Shown here in pieces: positions 46,131 through 61,643 of a stretch of DNA of 64,000 bases. This DNA is from Pseudomonas sp. LS44. GTDB taxonomy: Bacteria > Pseudomonadota > Gammaproteobacteria > Pseudomonadales > Pseudomonadaceae. Made by a program: the position numbers and the translations under genes. How positions within the stretch are numbered: position 1 is the first letter of the stretch; the number at the start of each line of letters is the position of its first letter. The notes below the pieces were generated by a model, which was given only the letters and a program-made list of their open reading frames with translations, searched no databases and was not told the origin of the DNA. The stretch spans positions 1,550,001-1,614,000 of the forward strand of contig NZ_CP102830.1 in the NCBI RefSeq assembly GCF_024730785.1, written 5' to 3'.

Positions 46131-46207
46131 GTCCCAGTAGCTCAATTGGATAGAGCATCCCCCTCCTAAGGGGAAGGTTGGCAGTTCGAACCTGCCCTGG
46201 GACACCA
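46131..46207 (+). tRNA. tRNA-Arg (anticodon CCU), island attachment site
   Basis: A complete 77-nt tRNA: acceptor GTCCCAG/CTGGGAC, D-arm TAGCTCAATTGGATAGAGCA, anticodon loop CTCCTAA, T-arm GGCAGTTCGAACCTGCC, CCA encoded. Its 3' half from the anticodon loop is repeated at 61599-61643, marking it as the integration target of the following island. Confidence 0.95.
46163..46181 (+). other. attL core
   Basis: CTCCTAAGGGGAAGGTTGG, spanning the anticodon loop and the start of the variable/T region, is identical to 61599-61617. Past this point the two copies differ at scattered bases up to the CCA. Confidence 0.85.
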
Positions 46208-46343: not shown

Positions 46344-46397
46344 GGCGGTAATTGCTGTGCAATTGCCCAGACAAAGTAGTGCGAAATTGCATCTGAC

Positions 46398-46490
46398 TTG
46401 ACCACGCAGTTGCGTTGGTCTTGACCAGCGCTTGCGCTCGCCCTGACCACCGCCCCTCAATCGTAATCGGCAGAGAACGGCCAATTGCAG
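46398..46490 (+). repeat. 22-bp repeat array 1
   Basis: TTGACC/CTGACC starts at 46398, 46421 and 46443 (spacing 23 and 22). The units share TTGACCAC-N3-TTGC. They are followed by GGCAGAGAACGGCCAATTGC at about 46469, a tail also found after arrays 2 and 3. Lies between the tRNA and the YedK-like gene. The remaining 331-bp gap holds the arm repeat and a hairpin, no gene. Confidence 0.6.
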
Positions 46491-46538
46491 CCATCCCATT
46501 TTACCGCTTAGGCCAAATCGGCAGATGTCTTGAGGTAG

Positions 46539-47237
46539 CTATGATTCGCTATCGCCCAAGGGATGAATCAACGCGTCACCTTGATTGCGGACATTTCCTA
46601 CCGCTTTATCGACTGCATACCATTCGAAGTCTTCGGTCGGTCGGCCGCAGATCAGCACGATTTCTTCGGCGCGGGCGAGAGTGGTATCCGGGTCGATCCA
46701 CTCTCGCGCCAGGCTTGGCTCCAATACCACTGGGCGTCGATCATGGATGTCGACCATGCCGCCCTGGCTGTCGGCGGTGATGATCACGAATCCATCGCCC
46801 TCGCGCAGCTCACCTTCGTGCGGGAGCTGGCCGATCGCGGCGAAGAACATCGCGCCGCCATCTCGCAGCCGAATAAAGTAAGGCTGTTTGCGCTTCGGGG
46901 CCGCCTCATCCTTGACCCACTCATACCAGCCGTCTGCAGCGACCAACGCGCGGTGCGGCCAAATCTGCTTAAAAAACTTTCCGCTGGCCACCGTTTCGAC
47001 CCGAGCGTTGATCGGTGGCGGCATCCTCCCCTGCGCCCAATGCGGCGCCCATCCCCACTTCACAGCGGCGATTGTTAGCCCGCAGCCTTCGGCGTGCAGC
47101 AACTGAACCTTCGTAGTCGGCGGCACGTTGTAATGATCGATCGGCACGTTGTCGTACCCGCTGATCACGTCCTGCTCGCTGTCCAATTCCCGCAGGTAGT
47201 CGGCCATGCCCTGATACTGGGCAAATCGTCCGCACAT
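46539..47237 (-). CDS. SOS-associated YedK/HMCES-type protein
   Basis: A 232-residue protein that forms a stable thiazolidine crosslink with abasic sites in single-stranded DNA, shielding them from error-prone bypass. The nucleophile Cys2 (MCGRFAQY), Asn of PPPINARVE, Glu of DGWYEW and His of DIHDRRPVVL are all present, so it should be active. It is divergent from umuD/umuC around a LexA box at 47296, which would place all three under SOS control. It is an accessory copy carried by the island. Confidence 0.93.
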   Translation of the reverse strand: MCGRFAQYQGMADYLRELDSEQDVISGYDNVPIDHYNVPPTTKVQLLHAEGCGLTIAAVKWGWAPHWAQGRMPPPINARVETVASGKFFKQIWPHRALVAADGWYEWVKDEAAPKRKQPYFIRLRDGGAMFFAAIGQLPHEGELREGDGFVIITADSQGGMVDIHDRRPVVLEPSLAREWIDPDTTLARAEEIVLICGRPTEDFEWYAVDKAVGNVRNQGDALIHPLGDSES

Positions 47238-47295
47238 GCCTGACGCCTCATTCCGTCTGTCTGGCTCTATTGTAGGCTGTGGATTTTATCGGATA

Positions 47296-47311
47296 CTGTA
47301 TTTATATACAG
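47296..47311. promoter_or_regulatory. LexA (SOS) box
   Basis: CTGTATTTATATACAG, a full CTGT-N8-ACAG palindrome with the A/T-rich centre of the consensus. It lies 17 bp before the umuD ATG and 58 bp before the YedK-like start, so it can repress both directions. Confidence 0.88.
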
Positions 47312-47328
47312 TTTAATCCGGGTGACTC

Positions 47329-47763
47329 ATGTCCTACACCATCCTCGGGCCGCTCGCGCTAGGCGGTCAGGCTCTGCCGCTGTACTCCTCATTGGTCTCC
47401 GCTGGGTTTCCCTCGCCAGCGGCTGACCACATCGAGGCCGAAATCTCCCTGGATGAATTGCTCAACCTGCGCGCGCCACACATGTACATCGCCCAGGCGG
47501 TCGGCGACAGCATGATCGGTATCGGTATTTTTGACCGCGACTGGCTGGTGGTCGATCGTTCGCTTGAGGTGGTCTCGGGGGACATCGTCATTGCCGCTCT
47601 AAATAACGATCCGCTGGTGAAGCGGTTCCATCGGCATGGCCAGCAGATCATCCTGCATGCCGAAAATCCCGCGTACCCGCCGCGCTACATCCTGGAAGGT
47701 GATGAACTTCGTATCTGGGGAGTGGTGACCGACAGCATCCGGCGCCATCGCCACCATGGCTGA
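47329..47763 (+). CDS. umuD: UmuD-like self-cleaving SOS protein
   Basis: A 144-residue UmuD/RulA-type protein. The RecA-stimulated cleavage site is AGF (residues 26-28, SAGFPSPAAD), the nucleophile Ser in GDSMIG (near 60) and the lysine in DPLVKRF (near 97) make the Ser-Lys dyad. Processed UmuD' joins UmuC to form DNA polymerase V. It lacks the N-terminal HTH of LexA, so it is not a repressor. Its stop lies inside umuC (8-nt overlap). Confidence 0.93.
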   Translation: MSYTILGPLALGGQALPLYSSLVSAGFPSPAADHIEAEISLDELLNLRAPHMYIAQAVGDSMIGIGIFDRDWLVVDRSLEVVSGDIVIAALNNDPLVKRFHRHGQQIILHAENPAYPPRYILEGDELRIWGVVTDSIRRHRHHG

Positions 47764-49033
47764 ACAGGTACTGGCGCTCGTCGACTGCAATTCGTTCTAC
47801 GCGAGCTGCGAACGAGTGTTCCGGCCAGACCTGACGCATACCCCCATCGTGGTGCTGTCGAACAACGACGGCTGCGTGATAGCCCGTTCGGCCGAGGCCA
47901 AGGTGTTGGGCATCAAGATGGGCGAGCCATATTTCCAGATCCGCGACAAACTTCGGCGCCATGGCATTCTGGCGTTCTCCAGCAACTACGCCCTCTATGG
48001 CGACATGAGCCAGCGCGTGATGACAACGCTCGAAGGTATGGTGCCTGCGATCGAGGTGTACAGCATCGATGAAGCGTTCGCCGACCTGACGGGCATGCCT
48101 GGTGATATGGAGGCGTTGGGTCGTGCAATGCGCGCGCGGGTGTTGCGCTGGACGGGCATCCCGGTCGGCGTTGGCATCGCCACAACCAAGACCTTGGCCA
48201 AGCTCGCGAACCATTCTGCCAAACGCTGGCAGCGACAGACCGGAGGGGTGGTGGATCTGCGCGATCCGGATCGGCGCGACAAAGTGCTGAAGGTCACCGA
48301 TGTCAGCGAGGTCTGGGGCATTGGCCGGCGTATGACCGAGCACCTGGCCGAGATGAACATCCGCACTGCATTGGATCTCGCCCAGGCTGACGCCTGGACC
48401 CTGCGGCAGAAGTTCAGCGTGGTGGTGGAGAAGACCGCCCGCGAACTACGCGGCACGCCTTGTCTTGAACTGGAAGAGGCAACGCCGCCTAAGCAGGAGA
48501 TCTGTTGTAGCCGGATGTTCGGCAAGCGGTTGCGTGAGCTGCCGCCAATTCGGGAAGCAGTGGCCACCTATGCAGCGCGCGCCTGCGAGAAGCTCCGCGC
48601 GCAGCAATCGATGTGCAAGCGGGTGCGGGTCAGCATCCGTACCGGCATGTTCAATCCAGACGAACCGAAATTCGCCAAGGGTGTGGTGGTCGAGCTGCCA
48701 TACCCAACCGACGATACCCGCCTGATAAGCAAGGCGGCCGCCGATGGGCTGGAGCTGATCTACCGGGAGGGTTTTGCGTTCAGTAAGGCCGAGTTGCTGC
48801 TGCTTGATCTGCGCCAGCATGGCGAGTTCACTGACGACCTGTTCGCCACCACTCAGCCAGAAGCTGCGGAGAAGGTGATGAGGGTTCTGGATGCAATCAA
48901 TGCGAGATGGGGAAGGGGAACCCTGCATCCAGCCAGCGTGCCGGCGGCGCCGGACTGGGGCATGCGTCGGGAAATGAAGAGTCCGAGCTACACGACTCGG
49001 TTGGATCAGTTGTGGACCGTGTCGTGTCGGTAA
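47756..49033 (+). CDS. umuC: UmuC-like Y-family DNA polymerase subunit
   Basis: A 425-residue catalytic subunit of polymerase V. Palm motifs: LVDCNSFYASCERVF (metal-binding Asp8) at the N-terminus and YSIDEAFADL (near 101) with the catalytic Asp-Glu pair. The thumb/HhH region (EVWGIGRRMTEHLAEM) and little-finger domain follow. Full-length and intact. Coupled to umuD by an 8-nt overlap. As an island-borne copy it may raise SOS mutagenesis in the host. Confidence 0.94.
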   Translation: MAEQVLALVDCNSFYASCERVFRPDLTHTPIVVLSNNDGCVIARSAEAKVLGIKMGEPYFQIRDKLRRHGILAFSSNYALYGDMSQRVMTTLEGMVPAIEVYSIDEAFADLTGMPGDMEALGRAMRARVLRWTGIPVGVGIATTKTLAKLANHSAKRWQRQTGGVVDLRDPDRRDKVLKVTDVSEVWGIGRRMTEHLAEMNIRTALDLAQADAWTLRQKFSVVVEKTARELRGTPCLELEEATPPKQEICCSRMFGKRLRELPPIREAVATYAARACEKLRAQQSMCKRVRVSIRTGMFNPDEPKFAKGVVVELPYPTDDTRLISKAAADGLELIYREGFAFSKAELLLLDLRQHGEFTDDLFATTQPEAAEKVMRVLDAINARWGRGTLHPASVPAAPDWGMRREMKSPSYTTRLDQLWTVSCR

Positions 49034-49084
49034 TCTGGTTATGCCGCACTGGGGCCTGAATGGCGACTGTTTTTCCGCGTCTAC

Positions 49085-49270
49085 TTGACCCTTGCTTGAT
49101 TGCACTGACTTGACCACCCAATTGCATTGCCACTGACCACCCAATTGCATTCGTGCTGAGCACCGTTTGCATGCAGCTTGACCAATACACGCAGCAGTGA
49201 CGACCGGCTGCATACGACCCGAAGCTGCCTGTCGGGACCGGCAAAGAACGACCAAAAGCGGACTGTGCAG
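49085..49270 (+). repeat. 22-bp repeat array 2
   Basis: TTGACC/CTGACC-like starts at 49085, 49110, 49133, 49156 and 49178 (spacings 25, 23, 23, 22); the best units read CTGACCACCCAATTGCATT. A tail CGGCAAAGAACGACCAAAAG at about 49239 matches that of array 1. It fills the 432-bp gap between umuC and the STAND gene; no gene is seen there. Together with array 3 in reverse orientation it brackets the cargo at 49.4-56.2 kb. Confidence 0.65.
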
Positions 49271-49465
49271 AGCCCGACATTCAACTTGTTGACAGCCGAT
49301 GCAGCGATTGTGCGAGTTGGACAGGCGCGTCAATGGGGCGCGTCTCCCAAGACAGCGACAGCTTCCCTGCTTCTCCGCTAAACGCAGGCACACGCCATAT
49401 CCCGACTCACTGGGATGGTGGGGCAAAATGCTATCTTGTCTGCTGCATAAGGAGCGGGTAAGCCA

Positions 49466-51706
49466 GTGAACGACTACGATTTTTCACGCCTGAACGACAA
49501 AGAATTTGAGGTGCTCTGCAATGACCTCATAGGCGCCAAGGAAAAGGTAACCTTTGAGCGCTTTAAGCCTGGTCCGGACAAAGGTGTCGATGGACGACAC
49601 TTCACGTCTACCAAAGCTGAATGGATTCTTCAGGCCAAGCACTGGGTCTCCACTTCTTTCTCGCAGTTGGTACGCCACATCAGAGATTCTGAGGCGGCAA
49701 AGGTCGGGAAACTTAATCCTGAACGGTACATCTTGGTGCTATCGCACAAGCTGTCCAGAGCCAACAAGACTGAAATCACGGATATTCTTGGCGCTCACGC
49801 GTCGTGCCGCGTTGATATCTATGGCCGAGAAGATCTGAACGATCTCCTCGCGCAACATCCCACCGTTGAGCGGCGGCATTTTAAGCTTTGGATTAGCAGC
49901 AGTTCGGTGTTGAGCAATCTCTTAAATAACGCAATCAATGGTCGCAGTGACGCGATGATGAGAGACATTGTCGAAAAATCGAAAATCTATGTCCAAACAA
50001 GTAATTTTACATCCGCTCTAGAAACCTTGGACAGGCTTGGTACGGTAATCATTACGGGCCAGGCCGGCATTGGTAAAACGACGCTTGCTGAGCAGATCAT
50101 CCTCCACTACGCCAGCGCAAGGTTCGAGCTTCTTTGCATCAGCGACGACTTACGGGAGGCAGAGCAAGCCTATGACCCGGAGCGGCCCCAGCTTTTCTAT
50201 TTCGACGATTTCCTCGGCAAAAACTACCTCCAGGCATTATCAGGTCATGAAGGCAGCCAGATCGTACATTTCATCAAACGAATTGCTCGCGAAAAATCAC
50301 ACAAGCGCTTTTTGCTGACATCCCGATCGACCATTTTAAATCAGGGGCGGATCCTAAATGATGCGTTCGATAACGCCCATATCAGCCGCAATGAAATGGA
50401 GATCAAACTGGCATCACTCTCCAGCCTAGACAAAGCGCATATTCTCTACAACCACATATGGCACTCCAATCTCGGTCCTTCTTTCGTCGACGAGTTGTAT
50501 TCGGAGAAGAGATACCTGCAGGTCATCGAACACAGAAATTTCAACCCGCGCATAATCGATTTTATTACTGACTCGCAACGCTTGCTCGATGTCGACGCTA
50601 ATGAATACTGGGAACATATCAGCGATTTGCTGGAGAATCCGTCCAAAATATGGGAGCACCCATTTGATGCACAACTCGATGATTTTGGCCGTTTTATCGT
50701 TCTTCTTGTGGCATTTAATAAGCAAAACATTGAGGAAAGCGATCTGGCTAGAGCGTACGCCCGGGCGATTTCAATGCCGCAACACGCCAATTTCAACGGC
50801 AAGCGCGATTTCAATGTCGCAACCCGTCACCTGACAAACTCCCTGCTTACCCGTGTGATCATTCAGGACAGCGTCCGGTACCAGCTCTTCAATCCGTCGT
50901 TGGGTGATTTTCTGTTGCATCGGTACGCAAAGCTTCCGGCGGCCCTTGAAATTGTTTTGAAGTGCTTGCACAGCCAAGGCGCTATTGACGTGCTGCTGGA
51001 TATGTCCCAGAACAAATTCATCGACAAAGCGACCACACGCAAAATTTTGGAGTCTTTGTTTGCTCACGAAGAGTCAACGAATTTCCAAGACAGTGATTCA
51101 GAATACGTTTCCAAGCTCTGTCATGCTATCGCAAAGCTATCACGACACAGCGAAGGCTTCGAGCGGCTCAGGAAAACGGCAACTTTCGTGCTCAACGGTT
51201 CTTTCCCAACCCATTACTCGCACTGCTTAAGAGTTCTCCAAGCAGCCCTTCATCGCGGATTTGTCGAGCCTCAGAACATCCTTTCCTTTATCGAAGACGC
51301 GATCGAAGTAGGCGCCAATGACAGCGAGCTTCCCTTGCTCGGAGAATTAGTGGCAGCGCTTGAGCTCGCTGACATCCACACGGCCACCGCCGCTTTCGTC
51401 GACCTCGCACAAGCTCATATGGCTGACTCCCTGGATGATATTTTTGACGAAGGGGACATCTTCTATAACGGCGAAAATCTTGCTACAGCGAGAAAAGCGT
51501 TAGAGCGACTTATCGAGGAGAAGCTAACGACTTGGAACGTTTCTCCCACGCCAAGCTTCATTGATGAAATGGTGGATGCCTATGAACTGTCGGACAGAAT
51601 GAAAAATTTCTTTGAACCGGAGAGTTCCTACTACCCGCCGTCTCGGCCTGCACAGAAGATTATCGATATCGCCAGCATTGATGACCTATTTCAGAGAGAT
51701 CACTAG
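49466..51706 (+). CDS. Mrr-like nuclease fused to a STAND-type NTPase (candidate defence protein)
   Basis: A 746-residue protein starting at GTG behind AAGGAG. Residues 1-130 resemble an Mrr-type PD-(D/E)XK nuclease: an EFEVLCNDLIG helix, then Asp42 in GVDGRHF and Gln56-x-Lys58 in ILQAKHW. Residues 180-420 form a P-loop NTPase: Walker A GQAGIGKTT (198-206), Walker B QLFYFDDF (242-249), and an arginine-bearing RFLLTSRS sensor. The C-terminal 320 residues are helical and probably a sensor region. This nuclease-STAND-sensor order is that of Avs-like and nSTAND anti-phage proteins, though shorter. AT-rich compared with the core. It faces the protease gene end to end. Confidence 0.8.
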   Translation: MNDYDFSRLNDKEFEVLCNDLIGAKEKVTFERFKPGPDKGVDGRHFTSTKAEWILQAKHWVSTSFSQLVRHIRDSEAAKVGKLNPERYILVLSHKLSRANKTEITDILGAHASCRVDIYGREDLNDLLAQHPTVERRHFKLWISSSSVLSNLLNNAINGRSDAMMRDIVEKSKIYVQTSNFTSALETLDRLGTVIITGQAGIGKTTLAEQIILHYASARFELLCISDDLREAEQAYDPERPQLFYFDDFLGKNYLQALSGHEGSQIVHFIKRIAREKSHKRFLLTSRSTILNQGRILNDAFDNAHISRNEMEIKLASLSSLDKAHILYNHIWHSNLGPSFVDELYSEKRYLQVIEHRNFNPRIIDFITDSQRLLDVDANEYWEHISDLLENPSKIWEHPFDAQLDDFGRFIVLLVAFNKQNIEESDLARAYARAISMPQHANFNGKRDFNVATRHLTNSLLTRVIIQDSVRYQLFNPSLGDFLLHRYAKLPAALEIVLKCLHSQGAIDVLLDMSQNKFIDKATTRKILESLFAHEESTNFQDSDSEYVSKLCHAIAKLSRHSEGFERLRKTATFVLNGSFPTHYSHCLRVLQAALHRGFVEPQNILSFIEDAIEVGANDSELPLLGELVAALELADIHTATAAFVDLAQAHMADSLDDIFDEGDIFYNGENLATARKALERLIEEKLTTWNVSPTPSFIDEMVDAYELSDRMKNFFEPESSYYPPSRPAQKIIDIASIDDLFQRDH

Positions 51707-51879
51707 GCCCGCCCAATGCATATCAGTTTGAGTGGCGGTGGATAGCTGCCTGTCAAAGCCGACCGATTTCGGCCAGGAGCGGGCATTTAGATTGAAAAAT
51801 AGATCAGCCTTCTTTTCTCGTACAAAAAATCTGTCTCCGTTCTGCTCTGGCCCAAATGCTAGAAATAGAACTCCACAAG

Positions 51880-54408
51880 TCAGACAAGCTCTACCGGGAA
51901 GTCCAGACTCCATTGATTAGTGTCTGCTATCTGGGTCAGTCGCCCATCAGTAGTAACGACGTAGATCGATTTTTCATTTGCGCTTGCGTTGATGGGGAAG
52001 ACGGCGACATCACCTTGAAATTTCAAGTCTGCGAACCCGGAACGTTCCGCCGGAAAATCGAGGTTCCACTGGTTCGTGTCCCAAAGCTGAGCCAGCCGTC
52101 CATCGGTCGTGATAACAAAGATCGATTTCTTGTTCGCACCTGCGATGATTGGGAAGACAGCAATGCCGCCTTGGAACCTCAAGTCGGCGCGGCTAGCGAG
52201 AATCGCCGGAAAGTCAAGATTCCACTGGTTGGTATCCCAGATTTGAGCGAGTTGTCCATCTGTGGTGATGGCGTAAATCGATTTCTTGTTTGAGCCTGCG
52301 TCGGTAGGAAAAACCGCAATGCTGCCTTGGAATTTCAAGTCCGCGAACCCGGAACGTTCCGCTGGAAAATCGAGGTTCCACTGGTTAGTGTCCCAAATTT
52401 GAGCGAGTCGTCCATCAGTCGTGATGGCGTAAATAGATTTTTTATTTGCCCTTACATCGGAAGGAAAGACAGCGATGCCACCTTGAAATCTCAAATCGGC
52501 GAACCCAGCGAGTTCCGCCGGAAAGTCAAGATTCCATTGGTTCGTGTCCCAAATCTGAGCAAGTCGTCCATCGGATGTGATGGCGTAGATAGATTTCTTG
52601 TTCCCGCTTGCGTTGGTAGGAAATACCGCAATGCTGCCTTGGAATCTCAAGTCGAGATTCCCAGCGAGTTCCGCCGGGAAATGAAGGTGCCACTGATCGG
52701 TGTCCCAAATCTGAGCCAATCTTTTATCTACAGTGATGGCGAAGATAGACTTTTTGTGTACGTCTGCCCCGGTGGGAAATACTGCAATACCACCTCGGAA
52801 CCTCAAATTAGTGTGTCCGGCGAGTTCCGCTGGAAAGTCAAGATTCCATTGGTTTGTATCCCAAATCTGAATCAGTCGTCCTGTTGTCGTGAGGGTATAG
52901 ATAGATTTTTTGTTACCACTCGGATTGGTCGGAAAGACAGACAGGAAGGAGCTGAAACGTACTGCCCGATGTACAGCCTTACTAGCATTGACTCTCCCGA
53001 ACCCAAAAAAGAAACTCCATCCATTCGCATCATAATGAGCGCTCGCTGGATCGATTTTTTCTGCGGTTGCATTCAGAATCGTCCGAATGTTTTCCGGAGT
53101 TAGCGTGGGGTTTACACTTAACATCAGTCCAGCTATTCCTGCAGCGAGCGGCGCCGCCGCCGAGGTCCCACTAAAGCTACAATAGTCGCCTTCAGGTGAG
53201 TTTTGTTTGCTAAAACCATTAACGCCTTGTATGTCGGTTGTTAGTATTGAAGTTGTAAGATCACCGCCCGGCGCAAGAATATCAAGTCCGTTACCATATC
53301 GACTAAAAAAGGAAGCGGTATCCCGGTGGTCACTTGCGCCCACGGCAATTGTTTCTGGCAGGCTTGCAGGATACCCTATTGATGGAGTGTGAAAGTTGCC
53401 AGTTGAGCAAAATACTGAAACTCCATTGCTGACGGCTCGAGTAATTGCTGCGGTAACAGTGTTGCTTGGTATCATGGTAAAAGAACAACTGATAATACGT
53501 CCGCGCAATGCGGCCCAATCGAAGGCAGATGCCCATGTATCGACTAATCGAAAGTCTGTTAATTTTATTGGGATAATTTGACAGTTTGGCGCAATCCCTA
53601 CCACTCCCAGGCCATTTATGGCTGCGGCTATAATTCCAGCGCATGCTGTTCCATGTGCATCAAATTTATTAGAAGGATCGTCGTCATTGGTATCGAAATT
53701 CCATCCAGCCGCGATATTGAGGAAAAGGTCTGGATGAGTAGTATCGATGCCAGAATCAATAATAGCGATCCCAATGTCGGGTGACCCAGTTGTTAAAGTC
53801 CATGCGCCAAGTGCACTTACGTCTGCCCCTGGCGTGCCGGATCGTTGACCGGTGTTTCGAAGGTGCCATTGATCCCCAAATCGCGGCTCATCTTGTGGTA
53901 GTTGATTAAATTTTGCTGCCTGAAGAAAATTTGGTTCGGCAAATTTTACAATCCTCTCGTTTGAAATCTCGCGAGAGAGTACAAGCGGAGCATCCTCGTT
54001 TGGCTCTGTCACATAGATTTTCCAGAAGGTCGCAGTCTTTTCAATAACCTTTCCGTCAAATTTCTTGATTAACTTTTTTCTATCACCGTCGCTGGATTCG
54101 TCGTCGAAGCTGATCAGAATTTCGTTTGTTAACACGAGTAGGTTGCCTTGGCTGTCTTGGTAGGCGGATCGAGTGTTTTGGATATCTCGATAATTACCGA
54201 CTTCCTTCAGCTTCTCCTTATCGCCCCATACGACGAGGAACTCTGGTGGAAAGGCCCTGTCAAGTGCCAACCTCGTTGATCGTGCAAGGCGCGCTGCAAC
54301 TGTGGCTGGGTGCTCGCCTCGCACTGGTGTGATCAGGCGTATGTTCTCAATTAGCATGAGAGGTATCAGCGACCCATTTACGATTAGTGAATAATCTCCA
54401 CTTTCCAT
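51880..54408 (-). CDS. Subtilisin-like protease with C-terminal seven-bladed propeller
   Basis: An 842-residue protein without signal peptide. Residues 1-170 are an unfamiliar N-terminal region, perhaps an inhibitory prodomain. Residues 190-475 are a subtilase: Asp218 (IAIIDSGID), His252 (AHGTACAG), oxyanion Asn338 (CSTGN) and Ser416 (SFSGTSAAAP), all intact. From about 480 to the end are seven near-identical repeats of about 52 residues with NKKSIYAITTDGRLAQIWD and TNQWNLDFPAEL, fitting a closed seven-bladed beta-propeller similar in pattern to PLL-type lectins. Clearly AT-rich. A target-recognition role for the propeller is inference. Confidence 0.83.
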   Translation of the reverse strand: MESGDYSLIVNGSLIPLMLIENIRLITPVRGEHPATVAARLARSTRLALDRAFPPEFLVVWGDKEKLKEVGNYRDIQNTRSAYQDSQGNLLVLTNEILISFDDESSDGDRKKLIKKFDGKVIEKTATFWKIYVTEPNEDAPLVLSREISNERIVKFAEPNFLQAAKFNQLPQDEPRFGDQWHLRNTGQRSGTPGADVSALGAWTLTTGSPDIGIAIIDSGIDTTHPDLFLNIAAGWNFDTNDDDPSNKFDAHGTACAGIIAAAINGLGVVGIAPNCQIIPIKLTDFRLVDTWASAFDWAALRGRIISCSFTMIPSNTVTAAITRAVSNGVSVFCSTGNFHTPSIGYPASLPETIAVGASDHRDTASFFSRYGNGLDILAPGGDLTTSILTTDIQGVNGFSKQNSPEGDYCSFSGTSAAAPLAAGIAGLMLSVNPTLTPENIRTILNATAEKIDPASAHYDANGWSFFFGFGRVNASKAVHRAVRFSSFLSVFPTNPSGNKKSIYTLTTTGRLIQIWDTNQWNLDFPAELAGHTNLRFRGGIAVFPTGADVHKKSIFAITVDKRLAQIWDTDQWHLHFPAELAGNLDLRFQGSIAVFPTNASGNKKSIYAITSDGRLAQIWDTNQWNLDFPAELAGFADLRFQGGIAVFPSDVRANKKSIYAITTDGRLAQIWDTNQWNLDFPAERSGFADLKFQGSIAVFPTDAGSNKKSIYAITTDGQLAQIWDTNQWNLDFPAILASRADLRFQGGIAVFPIIAGANKKSIFVITTDGRLAQLWDTNQWNLDFPAERSGFADLKFQGDVAVFPINASANEKSIYVVTTDGRLTQIADTNQWSLDFPVELV
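51900..52960 (-). repeat. Seven 156-bp tandem repeats in the protease gene
   Basis: The block with GTGTCCCA(A/G)ATCTGAGC (plus-strand view) recurs at about 156-bp steps through 51930-52870. The outermost copies are the most diverged, the inner ones almost identical, typical of repeat expansion or gene conversion. Confidence 0.85.
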
Positions 54409-54734
54409 TTTGGTGGTCCGTAAGCCTTAGATGATTTAGGGAAATTAAAAAGCGCAATCTTATGCTTTGATAATTTGAGTGGGAACACAGCCTAAATTTA
54501 AAGCCACTTCCATTCGCATTAACTTTAATAGCCCCTCAAAACTGGATAGTTCTTAAATACATAACTCTAGCGCGTTTGGATTATGTGCTTAGATCAAGTG
54601 GAGATTTACATTCGAACGTCAGAATCTATAGGAGCGAATGTAAGCGTGCACTGGCCAACGTGTTTGATAGGAGTCCTCTGTGAAGAGCATTTAGTGCTCG
54701 CTTTTGCTTCGTATGGCATGTCTTTGAGTTTGTC

Positions 54735-54902
54735 CTAAGTTTTGTTTTGAAATGCCGTATCTGAGCAGAGTAAATCTGGGTAGCCTTTTAGGTAGCGATC
54801 GAAGGCCCAAGATTGGTTTTCCGTGAGTGAATCGCCCCAGATCACGTAGACGGCTCCAAGCCTCAACGGAGGACTGCTAAGCCACTGCGGAATAGTCCAC
54901 AT
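54735..54902 (-). CDS. Small ORF or gene fragment, 55 residues
   Basis: ATG at 54900-54902 opens 55 codons with natural-looking composition (MWTIPQWLSSPPLRLG, then VYVIWGDSLTENQSWAFDRY and a short tail). No ribosome site is clear, and the DNA directly upstream is a GC-rich spacer repeat (54905-54956), so it may be the C-terminal fragment of a lost gene. Not recognised. The gap 54409-54734 to its left holds the protease promoter region and nothing else I can name. Confidence 0.35.
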   Translation of the reverse strand: MWTIPQWLSSPPLRLGAVYVIWGDSLTENQSWAFDRYLKGYPDLLCSDTAFQNKT

Positions 54903-55016
54903 TTGGCCGGAGGCGGACGCCTGCGACCGCAGCCAACGGCCAGAAGCGGCCGGTCTGCTTTATAAATAAATCTATCCCCCTTTTCCTTCTGCAAACAGGG
55001 GCGGGAGGTAGATGAA

Positions 55017-55121
55017 ATGCAACTGTTTAAGGGCCGGATCTATAAGCGCGTTTACGCTGGGGCCAGCGAAGCGCTACCGCAAATGCGTGAATCCTATACG
55101 CTTTACGGCCCGGTCCATTAG
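55017..55121 (+). CDS. 34-residue ORF coupled to the NucS-like nuclease gene
   Basis: ATG at 55017 follows GGGAGG at 9 nt; the product (MQLFKGRIYKRVYAGASEAL, then a 14-residue tail) is basic and its TAG is followed at once by the ATG of the next gene. This is the layout of a leader or small partner protein translated together with the nuclease. A competing frame at 55012 gives a less protein-like product. Function unknown. Confidence 0.5.
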   Translation: MQLFKGRIYKRVYAGASEALPQMRESYTLYGPVH

Positions 55122-55958
55122 ATGAACCTAGAATACGAACAAGGGGTACAAATAGTGAGCAACGGTAACCGCCCGCCGGTATGGCAAATGGTTAGGGAAG
55201 CAGCCCAGCAGTTGAATGGAGAATGTACGTATCAAGCGATTAAAGCAAAAGTGCGGTCGATGTATGGCGATGAGATCAACGACAGTTCGATGACATGCAG
55301 CATTATCTCGGGGGCGGTGAATCACCCATCGCGTATCCATTACAGCGAGAACAAAAAACCACGGCTCACCGACACAACCTACGACTACCTGTTCAGCACT
55401 GGGCGCGGTCGGGTTGTTTGGTACCAGCCTGAGAAACACGGCGTATGGGAGATAGCACATTCTGCCGACGGCGCATTGATCGTCCGCCTCGCAGACGGTG
55501 TGGGCGACAATCCAGCGCAGATCGCCGAAGCCGTAGAAGCAACCGATGATGCGTACGACATGTTCGCTCTAGAGGCGCACCTTCGCGACTACCTCGCCAA
55601 GAAGCTTCCCAAGCTGCCAGGTCACAATGCGCCGCTTACCCTATACCGCACGGACGATCGTGATGGTGTGGAATTTCAAACCGACGTTGGTCCCATCGAT
55701 ATCCTGGCGACCGGCAAGGGCGACTTCTACGTACTCGAACTGAAAGTCGGCCGCGGACCAGACGCGGCTCTGGGACAAATTCTTCGTTATATGGGCTGGG
55801 TTAAAGAGCACCTGGCGGGCGACAAGAACGTGTATGGCATCATTATCGCGTCGGACATCGGCCAGAAACTGCGTTACGCGGCAACGCAGGTTCCGAATGT
55901 CCGGCTGATGGAGTACGACCTCGCCGTAACGCTTCGCCAGGTGGCCCTGCATGCTTGA
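55122..55958 (+). CDS. NucS-like (DUF91) nuclease with N-terminal winged-helix-like domain
   Basis: A 278-residue protein. The C-terminal third has the NucS/RecB-like nuclease core: GVEFQTDVGPIDIL (Asp193), VLELKVG (Glu206, Lys208) and GQILRYMGWV (Gln219, Arg222, Tyr223), the QxxRY motif of NucS. Residues 18-105 look like a small helical DNA-binding domain (VWQMVREAAQQLNGECTYQA). NucS proper cuts mismatches in actinobacteria and archaea; isolated DUF91 nucleases in islands are more often linked with defence. The ATG directly follows the 34-residue ORF stop. Confidence 0.78.
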   Translation: MNLEYEQGVQIVSNGNRPPVWQMVREAAQQLNGECTYQAIKAKVRSMYGDEINDSSMTCSIISGAVNHPSRIHYSENKKPRLTDTTYDYLFSTGRGRVVWYQPEKHGVWEIAHSADGALIVRLADGVGDNPAQIAEAVEATDDAYDMFALEAHLRDYLAKKLPKLPGHNAPLTLYRTDDRDGVEFQTDVGPIDILATGKGDFYVLELKVGRGPDAALGQILRYMGWVKEHLAGDKNVYGIIIASDIGQKLRYAATQVPNVRLMEYDLAVTLRQVALHA

Positions 55959-56159
55959 GGGGGCGCCAGTAGCGCGCAGGCCATGACAGGTCGTTACCGC
56001 CCCTTCAATTGAGCGACAGACTCTCCGTCTCATTATTGCCGGCTTCTGCCAGCGAGGTAGCCTGGATGACCATTGGTGGAAAACGCTCTGCGGTTTTTCA
56101 CCCTACGCGAACTTGAGAGCTATGTAGGGTGGACAACGCTTTCTTGTCCACCAGCTTCT

Positions 56160-56285
56160 GCGAGTGGCAGCAATGGGTCGATCTCTGCCAGTCACATCAC
56201 TGCCGTCTACTGGTCAAGTCGGATGCAATCAGTGGTCAGCACCGATGCAGTTGGCTGGTCAGATGGGTGCAATTGCGCAGAGTAG
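56160..56285 (-). repeat. 22-bp repeat array 3 (reverse orientation)
   Basis: On the minus strand units start at 56262, 56239 and 56217 (plus-strand GGTCAG/GGTCAA at 56257, 56234 and 56212; spacings 23 and 22) with CTGACCAGCCAACTGCATC as the best unit. The tail GGCAGAGATCGACCCATTGC, also on the minus strand, matches array 1. The remainder of the 788-bp gap 55959-56746 has a GTAGGGTGGACAACG-type repeat near 56125 and no convincing gene. Confidence 0.62.
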
Positions 56286-56746: not shown

Positions 56747-57955
56747 TTACACCAACGCCAACCACCCGCCCAAGTTCAACCCCGCGAAACGCGCGCCCCC
56801 CTCACCATGCCACCGCTCCAACGCCTCTCGCTTCAACGCTTCCAACTCCGTTTGCACATACGTTGCCGTCAGCAACGGCGAAGCATGGTTTAACAACAAC
56901 TCTCCCGGCAGCCAATCCACTCCAATCTCAGCCCAGCAGGCCCGCGCCAGCTTGCGCAAATCATGACTTGTCCACTCTCTTTCGCTCAGGTTCATGAATA
57001 GTCCCGTCACTGCCTGCGCGCTCAGCGGTTGCCCGCACTCACCAGGGAACAGGTACTCCCCAGGATCATCACCACAGGTCGCCCGATAACGCTTCAATAG
57101 CGCCAACATCTGCGGCGTTAGCGGTAACTCATGCTGTGTCCGCGTCTTGGTTTTCTCAGCCGGAATGATCCATAACCGTTCGGCTTCATGAAAGTCAGAC
57201 CAGCGCGCTTGCCGCGTCTCACCCACCCGCGTTCCGTGGCACAACATCAGCAGCGCCAACATGCCCACACGCGGATCGCGCTCGAAACGCTCGACTAACT
57301 TCGGCAACAGGTCGACCAGTTGCCCAGGACGCAACCGCGCTACCTTTGGCTTGATCTTGGCTAGCCCAAAGTCAGTGAACTTAACGCCTATCAGCGGATT
57401 GGAAGCCAACAACCCAAGGCCCACAGCGCAGCGAATAGCAGCCACCAACAAGCCATAGACCTGACGAATGTACGCGGGCGTCACCGCCTCCTGCATCGGA
57501 TGGATCAACAGCCGGTCAAGCAACACCTTGTCCAGATCAGCGACCGGAACCGCGCTCAGGCGCGGCAAAAGCCAAGTCTGCATAACCGACTTGCAGTTGC
57601 TTTTACGGACGCTTGATAGCGTGCGCGTGCGCAATTGCCGCTCCGAAAACCACGTCAGTAACTGCCCCGTCATCACCAACATGCCCGCCGACACGACTGG
57701 CCGAGCGCCCCCCTTAAGCTGTTCGATCACACGAGGCAGACGCTCCAGCATGGTCGGACAATTCAGCTCGGGATAATTGCCGACCTTGCGCCAACGCCCG
57801 CCCTGGAACACATCCCAAGTGCCCCTCGTTCTGACTGTCCGGTATCGAAAACGCAACGCCGGATAATGATCGTCCCGTAAATAGCTGGCGTCCGTATCCC
57901 GGCGCAGCCTGCCTATCATCGTTTCGCTTAACCGTGTGTAAACCGTGTCACCCAT
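56747..57955 (-). CDS. Tyrosine recombinase (second integrase of the island)
   Basis: From the ATG at 57955 (the first frame start is 57982) the protein is 402 residues. Catalytic residues: first Arg in HGTRVGETR (near 249), Lys in EKTKTRTQHELPL, the HDLRKLAR box (His-x-x-Arg), LLNHAS (His) and Tyr in ATYVQTE near 370. All are present, so it should be active. It differs strongly from the P4-type integrase at 60069, so the island carries two recombinases, perhaps from two nested elements. Confidence 0.88.
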   Translation of the reverse strand: MGDTVYTRLSETMIGRLRRDTDASYLRDDHYPALRFRYRTVRTRGTWDVFQGGRWRKVGNYPELNCPTMLERLPRVIEQLKGGARPVVSAGMLVMTGQLLTWFSERQLRTRTLSSVRKSNCKSVMQTWLLPRLSAVPVADLDKVLLDRLLIHPMQEAVTPAYIRQVYGLLVAAIRCAVGLGLLASNPLIGVKFTDFGLAKIKPKVARLRPGQLVDLLPKLVERFERDPRVGMLALLMLCHGTRVGETRQARWSDFHEAERLWIIPAEKTKTRTQHELPLTPQMLALLKRYRATCGDDPGEYLFPGECGQPLSAQAVTGLFMNLSEREWTSHDLRKLARACWAEIGVDWLPGELLLNHASPLLTATYVQTELEALKREALERWHGEGGARFAGLNLGGWLALV

Positions 57956-58162
57956 AGACCACCTCTCACCGAGAATGACCACTTGCCCACCTCCTTACGG
58001 CGCTTCGCACCTCTACTCCGTGGATAACTGCACAGAGCAAAAGCAGGCTCAACCCCGCAAGCGGGGCCCCATTCGCCCAAAGCCAAAGCAGGTCATTTCT
58101 GACCTAGGCAAAAGCAACAGCAACAGCATTTGCCAGGCTCCGTCTGGTATATCTAAGAAGGA

Positions 58163-58287
58163 GTACAGTTTCTGTACCAAGTGAACCCCTCCCATGCGTA
58201 CAGTTTCTGTACCGATGGAGCCTGAAAAGAAGGCTCCTAGACCGTCATCGGTACAGTTTCTGTACGCAGTGGGTACAGTTTCTGTAC
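58163..58287. promoter_or_regulatory. Four copies of a perfect 15-bp palindrome
   Basis: GTACAGTTTCTGTAC (arms GTACAG/CTGTAC, centre TTT) occurs at 58163-58177, 58198-58212, 58251-58265 and 58273-58287. Two copies lie inside the 3' end of the HTH gene (encoding VQKLY and TETV), two lie beyond its stop. A hairpin GGAGCC-N9-GGCTCC at 58217-58237 sits between them. They look like an operator or iteron cluster for the HTH protein or for replication of the element. Confidence 0.7.
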
Positions 58288-58704
58288 CGGGTTTTTTGCT
58301 CTTTCTAGGCTGAACTTGCGTGGCGGAGTGATGGTGGACGAAACCTCCAGCTTGCCGCCGCATTCGTCGATGGGCTGCCAGGTGACCGCATACAGCGCAC
58401 AGCAGCCCCCTGGCTTGATGAATCGACCCTGACGGGTGCAGGTGATCAGGTCGCGCTCCTGAAGCTCATTCAGGGCCTTAGTGAGCGTTGACTTACTGCC
58501 GATCCCCCAGGGCTTGGCTTGAGTGAACGAGGCTGACAGGTCACCGTTGTTACCGCCTTTGTACTGCCTAAGCACGCACATCAAGACTTTCATGGCACTG
58601 CCTGAGAGTGACTTGTAATCGTCATGATCCATCACGATATGGGGGAGCGCGGCGAAGCTGCCGGACTCCTTTCTTCCATTCGCCTTGGGGCGTTTCCGCG
58701 CCAT
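58237..58704 (-). CDS. Winged-helix DNA-binding protein of the replication module
   Basis: A 155-residue protein. The middle (YKSLSGSAMKVLMCVLRQY and GIGSKSTLTKALNELQERDL) is a winged-HTH of the kind found in phage and plasmid replication proteins. The C-terminal tail overlaps two of the GTACAG palindromes. Its ATG lies 2 bp past the stop of the primase fragment, so both are co-translated. Possible roles are autoregulator or origin-binding protein; not proven. Confidence 0.65.
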   Translation of the reverse strand: MARKRPKANGRKESGSFAALPHIVMDHDDYKSLSGSAMKVLMCVLRQYKGGNNGDLSASFTQAKPWGIGSKSTLTKALNELQERDLITCTRQGRFIKPGGCCALYAVTWQPIDECGGKLEVSSTITPPRKFSLERAKNPVQKLYPLRTETVPMTV

Positions 58705-59432: not shown

Positions 59433-60069
59433 GTTGCATTCTGTAATAGCTGCTCGACCTGGCACCGGAACGGAAGGCACAAATGCCGCTTAGGTCGTTC
59501 TTGAACACTGATTCGGATATAGAAAACGCGCTCTGATGTAGCTTCCGGCATAACGCCTGCAGATCAGCGCGAGTGCCTGGCATAGCGCTAGTGTCTAGGT
59601 TTGGGTCGACAGTCTTGAGTTGCTCGACAACCTGCCGCAGCAGGTCTTGTCGGTGCTTGCGGTGCTGGCGGGGTTTGCCTGGCTTGTCCAAGTAATCACA
59701 AAGCCAGTGTTTGACCTCTTCGCTCAGCGTGTCTGGTGTTTCCCCTATATCTTTAAGCCATTGCGCCGCGACAGCAGGCGTAACCTTGGGTAGCAGCAGC
59801 AGATCTATATAACGGGTGTCATTTCCTTCTTTGTTCGCTTTGTTCTGACGATACTCATTGGACCAGAGCTTTAAGTCATCAGGATACCTTTTGCCCTCCG
59901 TCGACCAACCCCACACCATGCCTGTCCATTCCCAGTGTTTGGGGTTTTCCCTGTCCTCAGTACCTGCCAATAGGTTAATTAAACCGAGTCGTGATACTTC
60001 GTGGGGATAGCCACTGTCAGACAGCTCCTTGCAAACCTTTGTCATCCGACCATTGCCTTTCCCAGTCAT
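59416..60069 (-). CDS. Hypothetical island protein, 217 residues
   Basis: The start overlaps the integrase stop by one base (TGATG), so it is translated with the integrase. It is hydrophilic, with WEWTGMVWGWSTEGKRYPDDLKLW in the first half (no more than a tryptophan-rich pattern can be named) and a basic helical C-terminal half (KPRQHRKHRQDLLRQVVEQL). No membrane segment or known catalytic motif. Not recognised; its link to the integrase suggests a role in maintenance or excision of the island. Confidence 0.55.
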   Translation of the reverse strand: MTGKGNGRMTKVCKELSDSGYPHEVSRLGLINLLAGTEDRENPKHWEWTGMVWGWSTEGKRYPDDLKLWSNEYRQNKANKEGNDTRYIDLLLLPKVTPAVAAQWLKDIGETPDTLSEEVKHWLCDYLDKPGKPRQHRKHRQDLLRQVVEQLKTVDPNLDTSAMPGTRADLQALCRKLHQSAFSISESVFKNDLSGICAFRSGARSSSYYRMQLSRLS

Positions 60070-61439
60070 CAGCGTTTTCCTCTCGGGCGCAGCTCCAGAA
60101 CTTCGGCTGTTTTTTTCAGGCCGCCCGCCGCCATCATTGCAGCAGTAGCGGTATTCACCGACTGCCGCACCGGATCGTCATCGAGGCGCGCATAGATGCG
60201 GGTTGATTGCGTGGTTTTGTGGTTCAGGCTCTTGCCGATGATCACCAGTGACGCGCCAGTCTTAGCCTGCCAGCTTCCAAGTGTGCGGCGCAGGTCGTGA
60301 ATGCGAATGTCGGTCATGTCATAGGCTGTCGGGCTGATCTTGAGTGCTTCTGCAATGGAGCGGCAATGCTCAAGTGCTTGGGTGGGGGCGTGGGCCAATA
60401 GATCGACGGCCTGTTGGCGATTCGCGTCGGTTAGCTGCCCCATCTCATCAAGAACTTCCAGCAGGCGACAGGTTGTCGCTCGGTTCAGGATGGTCGCCCA
60501 TGAGGTTTTGGGTTCGACTAGATGCCCGGTCTTACCGGTTCCTGGGAATACGAAGGGCGAGCCGTTAGCTGCTTGTTTGCGGGCTTTCAGTATTGCTAAT
60601 GCTTCGGGCGAAAGGGTGACATTCTGAGGGGTGCCATTCTTGGTCATGCCGATGCGCCAAATGCCCGCCTCTTGGTCTATGTCATGCCATCCCATTTCCT
60701 GAACGTTTGAGCGTCTTGCGCCAGTCAGTAGCGAAAGCAGGAAGAAGTCACCAATGGCAGATGTGGCAATAGCGTCGAATAAGTGCGGCAACTCGACACG
60801 CTGAACAAACCTGTCGCGCTCGACTGCTGGGTTCTTCTGGATGCGTGCCGCTGGGTTGATCCCGTCGAATATTCCTAGGTCGCCCGCGAAATTGAAAACA
60901 GCAGAGACGATGCGGACGGCTCTATCGGCTTGAGCATGGCTTTTCTTGGATGCCTTGACATGGATGGCTTTCAGATCGTCCCGGCTAATCTCGGCCAGTT
61001 TCTTGCCGGTTATCTTGCCCAGGTACAGCCGCAGTACATCTGAGTAGTTGGTTCGGGTCTTGGCGGTAAGCGTGGTTCCATCGCGCTTTTTCTTATCGAT
61101 CAGATAGCTTGCGAATACGTCACCAAAGGCCATCTGCTCGCGGACGGCTCTACGGGCCTCTGCCGGGTTGGCTCCGCTGGCGAATTCGCCCAGGACTTTT
61201 GCTGCTTCGTTTCTGGCCTGCTCGACTGTCATTTCTGGAAAGGAGCCGAGCTTTAGCCACGTCATCGCCGCGCCGGTACGCTTCACGACATAGAAGGTCT
61301 TAGCCCCTGCCGCCGTCGCTCGCAAAGCTAGCTTCTGGCACTGGCTGTCATAGACGGTTCTGCGCTTTCCTTGCGGGGGTAGCTCCAGCTTTAGCAGGTC
61401 GGTTTTTGTGAACTTGAATCGTTCGGTTGCTGGCTGCAT
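60069..61439 (-). CDS. P4-family tyrosine integrase
   Basis: A 456-residue integrase. The N-terminal DUF4102-type arm-binding domain (LELPPQGKRRTVYDSQCQKL) is followed by the core-binding and catalytic domains. Catalytic residues: Arg in LTGARRSNVQEM, Lys in MTKNGTPQNV, IHDLRRTLGSW (His-x-x-Arg), LNHKTTQ (His) and the Tyr nucleophile in STRIYARLD. All intact. It lies 160 bp from the right attachment site and is the likely enzyme for integration in tRNA-Arg(CCU). Confidence 0.93.
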   Translation of the reverse strand: MQPATERFKFTKTDLLKLELPPQGKRRTVYDSQCQKLALRATAAGAKTFYVVKRTGAAMTWLKLGSFPEMTVEQARNEAAKVLGEFASGANPAEARRAVREQMAFGDVFASYLIDKKKRDGTTLTAKTRTNYSDVLRLYLGKITGKKLAEISRDDLKAIHVKASKKSHAQADRAVRIVSAVFNFAGDLGIFDGINPAARIQKNPAVERDRFVQRVELPHLFDAIATSAIGDFFLLSLLTGARRSNVQEMGWHDIDQEAGIWRIGMTKNGTPQNVTLSPEALAILKARKQAANGSPFVFPGTGKTGHLVEPKTSWATILNRATTCRLLEVLDEMGQLTDANRQQAVDLLAHAPTQALEHCRSIAEALKISPTAYDMTDIRIHDLRRTLGSWQAKTGASLVIIGKSLNHKTTQSTRIYARLDDDPVRQSVNTATAAMMAAGGLKKTAEVLELRPRGKR

Positions 61440-61598: not shown

Positions 61599-61643
61599 CT
61601 CCTAAGGGGAAGGTTGGTGGTTCGAACCCACTCTGGGACGCCA
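61599..61643 (+). other. attR: 3' fragment of tRNA-Arg(CCU)
   Basis: The 19-bp core at 61599-61617 is identical to attL; the rest (T-arm GGTGGTTCGAACCCAC and CTGGGACGCCA) is a valid tRNA 3' end with a different T-stem and discriminator G instead of A. This is either the original chromosomal 3' end or the one from an older insertion. It is not a functional tRNA alone. Confidence 0.85.

What the first reader, a model, noticed from the sequence alone, without database searches (positions are those of the whole stretch)
49085..56285. Nuclease/STAND/protease cargo bracketed by inverted 22-bp repeat arrays
Array 2 (five units, plus orientation) and array 3 (three units, minus orientation) face inward around a block with an Mrr-like nuclease-STAND NTPase, a subtilase-propeller and a NucS-like nuclease. 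Inverted arrays of about 22 bp are the end structure of Tn7-like and IS21-like elements. No transposase is inside, so the block could be a non-autonomous mobile defence cassette. The repeats and gene order are seen; the transposon and defence roles are inferred.
Basis: partly seen in the sequence, partly recalled or inferred. Interest (0 to 1): 0.78.

Follow-up and report, generated by a model that had tools for sequence, protein, structure and literature searches.

The report
Transposase-less transposon carrying candidate defence genes
A 10-kb block of DNA-repair and candidate anti-phage genes in a Pseudomonas chromosome sits between end sequences that elsewhere belong to a known class of jumping gene (IS21), so it looks like a passenger cassette that can travel only when another element supplies the enzyme.

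Summary
The arrays are real. They are the ends of a transposon family found mainly in Pseudomonas. The same ends border some IS21 elements (istB-istA plus a conserved third gene) and many cargo blocks without istAB (24 of 28 pairs). Facing ends carry exact 5-6 bp target duplications in 14 of 28 pairs, against 1 of 756 mispaired controls. At one site elsewhere in the genus, 12 of 26 loci hold such an element, 11 are clean empty sites with one GAGCC, and 3 are unclear. There, 19 loci show 13 different interiors, one with an 88% identical copy of the window's NucS-like gene. In the window the better pair is array 1 to array 3 (46380-56279; flanks AAGTAG/GAGTAG, one mismatch), not array 2 to array 3, so SRAP-umuD-umuC is cargo too. 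This genome has no clear IS21 istB, so the element is non-autonomous. Family cargo includes Avs3, Mokosh, DRT, CBASS and GmrSD-like systems, but also arsenic, cadmium, tartrate and other genes. The window's genes match only candidate defence families. Mobility is well supported for the family and likely for this copy; defence is untested. A Tn7-like reading is not supported.

The parts
46374..46379 (.). left flank AAGTAG, imperfect partner of 56280-56285
   Evidence: sequence, (5 of 6 equal)
46380..46452 (+). array 1, outer left end, tip TGCGAAATTGCA intact
   Evidence: profile E 3.6e-13; 84% over 70 bp to the istB-side end of the Rms149 IS21 element
46539..47237 (-). SRAP (SOS response-associated peptidase)
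   Evidence: PF02586 8.2e-49
47329..47763 (+). UmuD-like S24 peptidase
   Evidence: PF00717 2.3e-29
47756..49033 (+). UmuC (polymerase V subunit)
   Evidence: PF00817, NF002955 over cut-off
49093..49190 (+). array 2, internal left-type end with a degenerate tip (TGCTTGATTGCA)
   Evidence: profile E 4e-20; no flank match with array 3
49466..51706 (+). Mrr-like nuclease + nSTAND3 NTPase, PADLOC candidate PDC-S73
   Evidence: nSTAND3 1.1e-46; PDC-S73 4.8e-276
51880..54408 (-). subtilase with C-terminal repeats of 156 bp (about 5.8 copies), weakly similar to beta-propeller lectins
   Evidence: PF00082 4.6e-50; tandem repeats; NF052348 1.9e-14, below cut-off
55122..55958 (+). DUF7669-NucS_C nuclease, PADLOC candidate PDC-S02-like
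   Evidence: 88.4% over 267 aa to a gene in another array-bounded element, L252
56199..56279 (-). array 3, outer right end, tip intact
   Evidence: profile E 5.5e-16
56280..56285 (.). right flank GAGTAG
46131..46207 (+). tRNA-Arg(CCT), left border of the island that holds the element
   Evidence: homology of three relatives stops 10-19 bp past it
56747..57982 (-). tyrosine integrase of the island, outside the element
   Evidence: PF00589 2.7e-18
60069..61439 (-). second tyrosine integrase, with Arm-DNA-bind_3 domain
61599..61628 (+). probable att repeat of the tRNA-Arg gene (28 of 30)

Best explanation
Window 46380-56279 is a 9.9-kb non-autonomous transposon of an IS21-type family found mainly in Pseudomonas. 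Its ends, tandem 22-23 bp units facing inward with tips near TGCGNAATTGCA, are most likely the binding sites of the IstA transposase of one IS21 subgroup (inferred from their place beside istB). This copy has no istAB and moves, or moved, only when such an element in the same cell supplies IstA/IstB in trans, making a 5-6 bp duplication (duplication shown for the family; supply in trans inferred). Array 2 is the left end of an older inner unit (array 2 to array 3); the last move used array 1 with array 3, so a SRAP-umuD-umuC module travelled along (inferred from tips and flanks). The unit landed in a tRNA-Arg(CCT) integrase island. The cargo is SOS mutagenesis genes plus three genes of kinds linked to phage defence; protection against phages is the likeliest benefit and is untested.
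For: Same ends 30-80 bp from istB of one IS21 subgroup: Rms149, NZ_CP017887, pPma4326F (two copies), G037, and a broken istB in G030. Exact 5/6-bp duplications 14 of 28 pairs vs 1 of 756. Filled and empty states of one site with a single GAGCC in the empty state. Window array 1-array 3 flanks agree in 5 of 6 bases; one or fewer mismatches in 1 of 420 mispairs. Array 1 and array 3 tips intact, array 2 tip degenerate. The window NucS gene recurs, 88.4% identical, between such ends at another place in Pseudomonas sp. TH15. Cargo matches PDC-S73 and PDC-S02.
Against: The window's own duplication is imperfect (5 of 6) and was judged after seeing it. No empty site was found at this locus: the right flank matched nothing in 56 other genomes, and no right backbone was found for three relatives. 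No IS21 istB at E<=1e-10 in this genome; the two weak matches over the family cut-off (E 4.6e-6 and 2.9e-5) were not examined. 14 of 28 pairs have no exact duplication, among them the compact istAB elements L071 and L100 and the Avs3 element. Only 2 of 37 IstB matches in 18 genomes lie beside an array, so most IS21 elements are unrelated to these ends. 0 of 8 PDC-S73 relatives are array-flanked.
Confidence: 0.78

Rival explanations
1. The unit is array 2 to array 3 (7.2 kb, the first reader's block): an IS21-type cassette inserted beside umuC; array 1 is a leftover end of another element.
For: Array 2 is the strongest profile hit and is of the extended type seen in many cargo elements. On two plasmids (GLE121, pAd12) an element of this family starts 5 and 9 bp after a umuC stop; in the window array 2 starts 59 bp after it.
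Against: Array 2 tip is degenerate and its flank has no partner beside array 3. In 0 of 29 other umuC loci is there an end within the 1.5 kb read on each side.
Confidence: 0.15
2. The ends are only relics or general recombination tracts: cargo between them is exchanged by ordinary homologous recombination, with no transposase acting now.
For: At the GAGCC site position, flank and adjoining end type stay the same while interiors change, and similarity stops mostly 56-374 bp inside. This host has no clear istB.
Against: Different sites with their own 5-6 bp duplications need transposition at some time; two such elements hold related NucS genes at unrelated places.
Confidence: 0.25
3. The cargo is not a defence set but a mixed passenger load (DNA repair, protease, nuclease) with no common role.
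For: Other members carry arsenic/cadmium genes, a globin and T6SS VgrG-Rhs genes, tartrate genes. No phage test exists here, and enrichment for defence was not measured.
Against: Strong PADLOC candidate match for the STAND gene; several family members carry known systems: Avs3, Mokosh, DRT, CBASS.
Confidence: 0.3

Closest known systems
IS21 family (IstA/IstB); passages of PMC11208146 seen
   Same: Ends of two or more repeated units each side; the same ends border istAB elements whose IstA passes NF033546 and resembles the solved IS5376 IstA.
   Different: No istAB inside this element; cargo of up to 28 kb in relatives; the array-linked istAB elements carry a third conserved gene without a Pfam or NCBIfam match.
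TIMEs, Tn3-derived non-autonomous elements of Pseudomonas; abstract and section list of PMC4133298 seen
   Same: Transposase-less elements that mobilise DNA between shared ends and make 5-6 bp duplications.
   Different: TIMEs have 38-bp Tn3 repeats; here the ends are multi-unit IS21-type arrays.
Tn7-like transposons with defence cargo; passages of PMC8649781 seen
   Same: End arrays and cargo that often includes defence systems.
   Different: Tips and linked transposase are of IS21 type; that text names IS21 once, and the word non-autonomous does not occur in it.
Pseudomonas island defence hotspots; passages of PMC12629846 seen
   Same: Changing defence cargo at fixed island positions.
   Different: 'Inverted repeat', 'insertion sequence' and 'non-autonomous' do not occur in that text; the hotspots in the passages seen have other neighbours.

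Membership tests
IS21-family transposon | multi-unit inverted ends shared with istAB elements | tested here: met
IS21-family transposon | istA and istB inside the element | tested here: not met
   six main ORFs scanned; hence filed only as non-autonomous, end-sharing relative
IS21-family transposon | short target duplication | tested here: inconclusive
   window 5 of 6 bases; family 14 of 28 pairs vs 1 of 756; empty sites
IS21-family transposon | movement by IstAB | not testable with these tools
   needs a transposition assay
Tn7-like transposon | TnsB/TnsC/TniQ genes linked to the ends | not tested
   no search for these families was run in the genomes; none turned up in the window ORFs scanned
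Tn7-like transposon | ends linked to a Tn7-type rather than another transposase | tested here: not met
   arrays border IS21 istB in five intact places and one broken one
anti-phage defence system | sequence match to a described or candidate defence family | tested here: met
   PDC-S73 4.8e-276, PDC-S02 2.4e-26; both are candidate families
anti-phage defence system | protection against phage | not testable with these tools
   needs plaque assays

The most novel reading that the evidence does not exclude
Pseudomonas has a genus-wide cassette system in which standard IS21-type ends act as sockets: transposase-less units move between sites by borrowed IstAB, and at fixed island sites their cargo, often anti-phage systems, is exchanged between conserved ends, so that one site has held at least 13 different cargos. 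The window is a stacked member that also picked up a mutagenic SOS module.
Probability: 0.4. Interest if true: 0.82.

Novelty: new variant of a known kind. Interest (0 to 1): 0.68.

Why it matters
Defence genes are known to move, but for small systems without their own recombinase the vehicle is often unknown. Here a recognisable end sequence gives borders, empty sites and duplications, so cassettes can be delimited by computer and unknown cargo ranked as defence candidates by the company it keeps. It also makes testable how a transposase-less unit finds a helper and how cargo is swapped at a fixed site.

Tried and rejected
Rejected: (1) Arrays as chance repeats: profile hits, duplications, empty sites. 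(2) Tn5042 as a member: its array lies inside the outer inverted repeats, near merR (I recognised those repeats as IS66-type from memory), so it is a captured end. (3) QKH54 as an autonomous member: one array end, an IstB about 7 kb away, and the gene I took for its third gene has no similarity to the others. (4) umuC as a preferred target: two plasmids and the window fit closely and two more loci loosely, but 0 of 29 other close umuC loci do. (5) The empty tRNA-Arg site in relatives: left homology stops just past the tRNA in three relatives, no right flank matched. (6) Using the 411-aa integrase to place the island: 24 relatives at 43-48% identity showed one tRNA nearby, tRNA-Arg(TCG). (7) PDC-S73 as a fixed companion of the ends: 0 of 8.

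Counts and dropped rows. The first set of 20 pairs had tips placed by hand from the profile. Of the 15 pairs printed (two of them the window's), three were not carried on (L083, L084-L085, an alternative pair in L071); I saw no exact duplication in their printed flanks; with them the count would be 14 of 31. In the automatic second set (10 pairs) L251 was dropped as a copy of pAd12 and L266 as a suspected copy of L252; one search then showed that L266 has other cargo, and it too has the 5-bp repeat. L245 and L252 in that set share one insertion site, so the 14 are at most 13 independent sites. Single-ended loci were not counted. With small shifts allowed, one search gave repeats of 5 bp or more in 11 of 22 pairs (window array 1-array 3 included) vs 3 of 460 mispairs. 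In one search three loci are identical to another locus over the 1500 bp compared and may be the same genomes met twice; L229 was too short and left out. The cargo list is of elements I opened, chosen by hit strength, not a random sample.
Full report
What is there. The window is bases 1550001-1614000 of a single 4.46-Mb contig, Pseudomonas by its relatives. Three arrays of 22-23 bp units stand at 46380-46452 (+), 49093-49190 (+) and 56199-56279 (-). Units read roughly CTTGACCAC-NNN-ATTGCATT; each array has an outer tip like TGCGTAATTGCA. A profile from 61 ends outside the window hits just these three places. Between array 1 and array 3 lie SRAP, UmuD, UmuC, an Mrr-nSTAND3 protein (PADLOC PDC-S73), a subtilase with a repeat domain and a DUF7669-NucS_C nuclease (PDC-S02-like).

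What the arrays are. Similar DNA occurs at 8 places in this genome at E<=2e-7, array 2 included, in 18 of 59 sampled genus genomes, own included, in 32 plasmid records, 30 of them Pseudomonas, and in no phage record. A degenerate, exact-match end pattern gave 64 stretches in one-genome-per-species contigs, 59 of them titled Pseudomonas, the others two Pseudomonadaceae, one Stutzerimonas, one Undibacterium and one gammaproteobacterial record, and one viral contig. On Rms149, on pPma4326F (two copies), on NZ_CP017887 and in G037 the array lies within 80 bp of istB of IS21, and in G030 of a broken istB. By contrast only 2 of 37 IstB matches in 18 array-bearing genomes are array-linked, so this is one IS21 subgroup. 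The four linked elements share IstA at 61-73% and IstB at 71-84% identity, and a third gene of 344-358 aa, interrupted in NZ_CP017887, that matched nothing in Pfam, PADLOC or NCBIfam where scanned. The NZ_CP017887 IstA passes NF033546 (IS21 transposase) and resembles the solved IS5376 IstA. Two compact istAB elements measure 4.4 and 4.2 kb (L071, L100), but their istB-side tips are degenerate and they show no exact duplication.

Movement in the family. In 14 of 28 pairs of facing ends the five or six bases outside one tip equal those outside the other; mispaired tips do so in 1 of 756 (choices and dropped rows under Tried and rejected). Examples: AGGCGC for the 20.5-kb Rms149 element with istAB, AAAGCG for a 28-kb arsenic-cadmium element on pPniHBP1_1, and GTCCAT, TCAGAC, TATCGC for transposase-less ones. 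Of the 28 pairs, 4 enclose istB (Rms149, NZ_CP017887 15 kb, pPma4326F, G037) and 24 do not. A site about 218 bp past an integrase gene (Arm-DNA-bind_3 type) gave a natural control: in 368 genomes, 25 had the flank (26 loci); 12 loci hold an element ending exactly at GAGCC, 11 show both flanks meeting in one GAGCC, 3 are unclear. Over 20 filled loci from two searches, 19 long enough to compare, there are 13 interiors without shared DNA beyond the end region; similarity reaches mostly 56-374 bp inside. Whether this is repeated insertion at one exact place or exchange of cargo between fixed ends is open: the end next to the integrase was of the same type in the loci printed, which fits exchange, or insertion in one fixed orientation.

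Cargo. With exact duplications: MkoA-MkoB (Mokosh, L253), FRG/PDC-S15 with PDC-S31 (L077), a kinase-phosphatase-phosphorylase set (L101), EcsC/PDC-S29 with HNH and NucS (L252), a TIR-domain gene (L245), a globin (L089), arsenic-cadmium genes (L301). Dropped from that count but with GAGCC repeats: a UG5-nitrilase reverse transcriptase (L266). Paired ends without an exact zero-shift duplication: Avs3a/Avs3b (L098), GmrSD (L090), arsenic genes (L105), VgrG-Rhs with istAB (L074), and an NucS/PDC-S11 nuclease in this same genome (L024, a 9-bp repeat if a shift of two is allowed). One end seen only: CBASS genes (L055), GmrSD-like gene (L265), Mrr nuclease (L221). Weak right end: tartrate genes (L058/L083). 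Whether defence genes are enriched was not measured.

Back to the window. The window's NucS-like gene has an 88.4% identical relative over 267 aa inside a GAGCC-site element of Pseudomonas sp. TH15 (L252), with 82.6% DNA identity over 909 bp: the same cargo gene between the same kind of ends, at a different place in another species. Which arrays pair? Arrays 1 and 3 have intact tips and flanks AAGTAG/GAGTAG; one or fewer mismatches occurred in 1 of 420 mispairs. Array 2 has a damaged tip and no matching flank. So the element most likely spans 46380-56279 and array 2 marks an older inner unit. The SRAP-umuD-umuC trio has relatives at up to 77% DNA identity in four other genomes, and none of 29 umuC loci read shows an end nearby, so it is best read as captured. 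The element lies in an island that begins at tRNA-Arg(CCT), where homology to three relatives stops 10-19 bp past the gene, and probably ends at a 28-of-30 repeat of that tRNA at 61599, with two integrase genes.

Mechanism. Shown: the ends, their sharing with istAB elements, duplications, empty sites, cargo turnover at one site. Inferred: IstA binds the arrays, IstAB act in trans, the window unit itself moved, the cargo protects against phages. This genome has no IS21 istB at E<=1e-10; two weak matches over the family cut-off were not examined and may be other ATPases. The copy is probably stranded unless a helper enters.

Known or new. IS21 ends of repeated units (PMC11208146, passages), transposase-less composite elements (TIMEs, PMC4133298, abstract), and defence cargo in Tn7-like elements (PMC8649781, passages) and in Pseudomonas islands (PMC12629846, passages) are known; Tn5042 was looked up in PMC13391042 (passages). 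In eight paper searches (listings seen) I met no description of IS21-type non-autonomous cassettes with defence cargo or of the GAGCC site. The library lacks most subscription papers, and the Rms149 and QKH54 papers, which I only recall, may describe parts of this.

Noticed in passing
L221, L225, L229, L244, L245, L252, L265, L266 and L275-L300: One chromosomal site about 218 bp past an integrase gene is filled with array-bounded elements in many Pseudomonas and empty in others, with 13 different interiors among 19 loci.
   Followed up: partly
L063:11069-12103, L071:11325-12401, L100:4444-5484, L074 (interrupted), L241:2520-3506: A conserved third gene of about 345-358 aa without a family match accompanies array-linked istAB; a role in target choice or regulation is possible but untested.
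   Followed up: partly
L060:8001 and L088:15057: On plasmids pGLE121P3 and pAd12 an element of this family starts 5 and 9 bp after a umuC stop codon; at pAd12 with duplication TCAGAC.
   Followed up: partly
L074:1381-16650: On the Pseudomonas frederiksbergensis plasmid an istAB element with the same ends encloses VgrG and PAAR-Rhs genes of a type VI secretion system.
   Followed up: no
58163-58297: Four copies of the palindromic unit GTACAGTTTCTGTAC in the island beside the integrase and two small ORFs; looks like operator sites.
   Followed up: no
30220-37617: A 2465-aa ORF with long internal repeats of 417 bp, not studied.
   Followed up: no
L082:12058-12131: The mercury transposon Tn5042 on pQBR103 carries one captured array end inside its own inverted repeats, next to merR.
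   Followed up: partly
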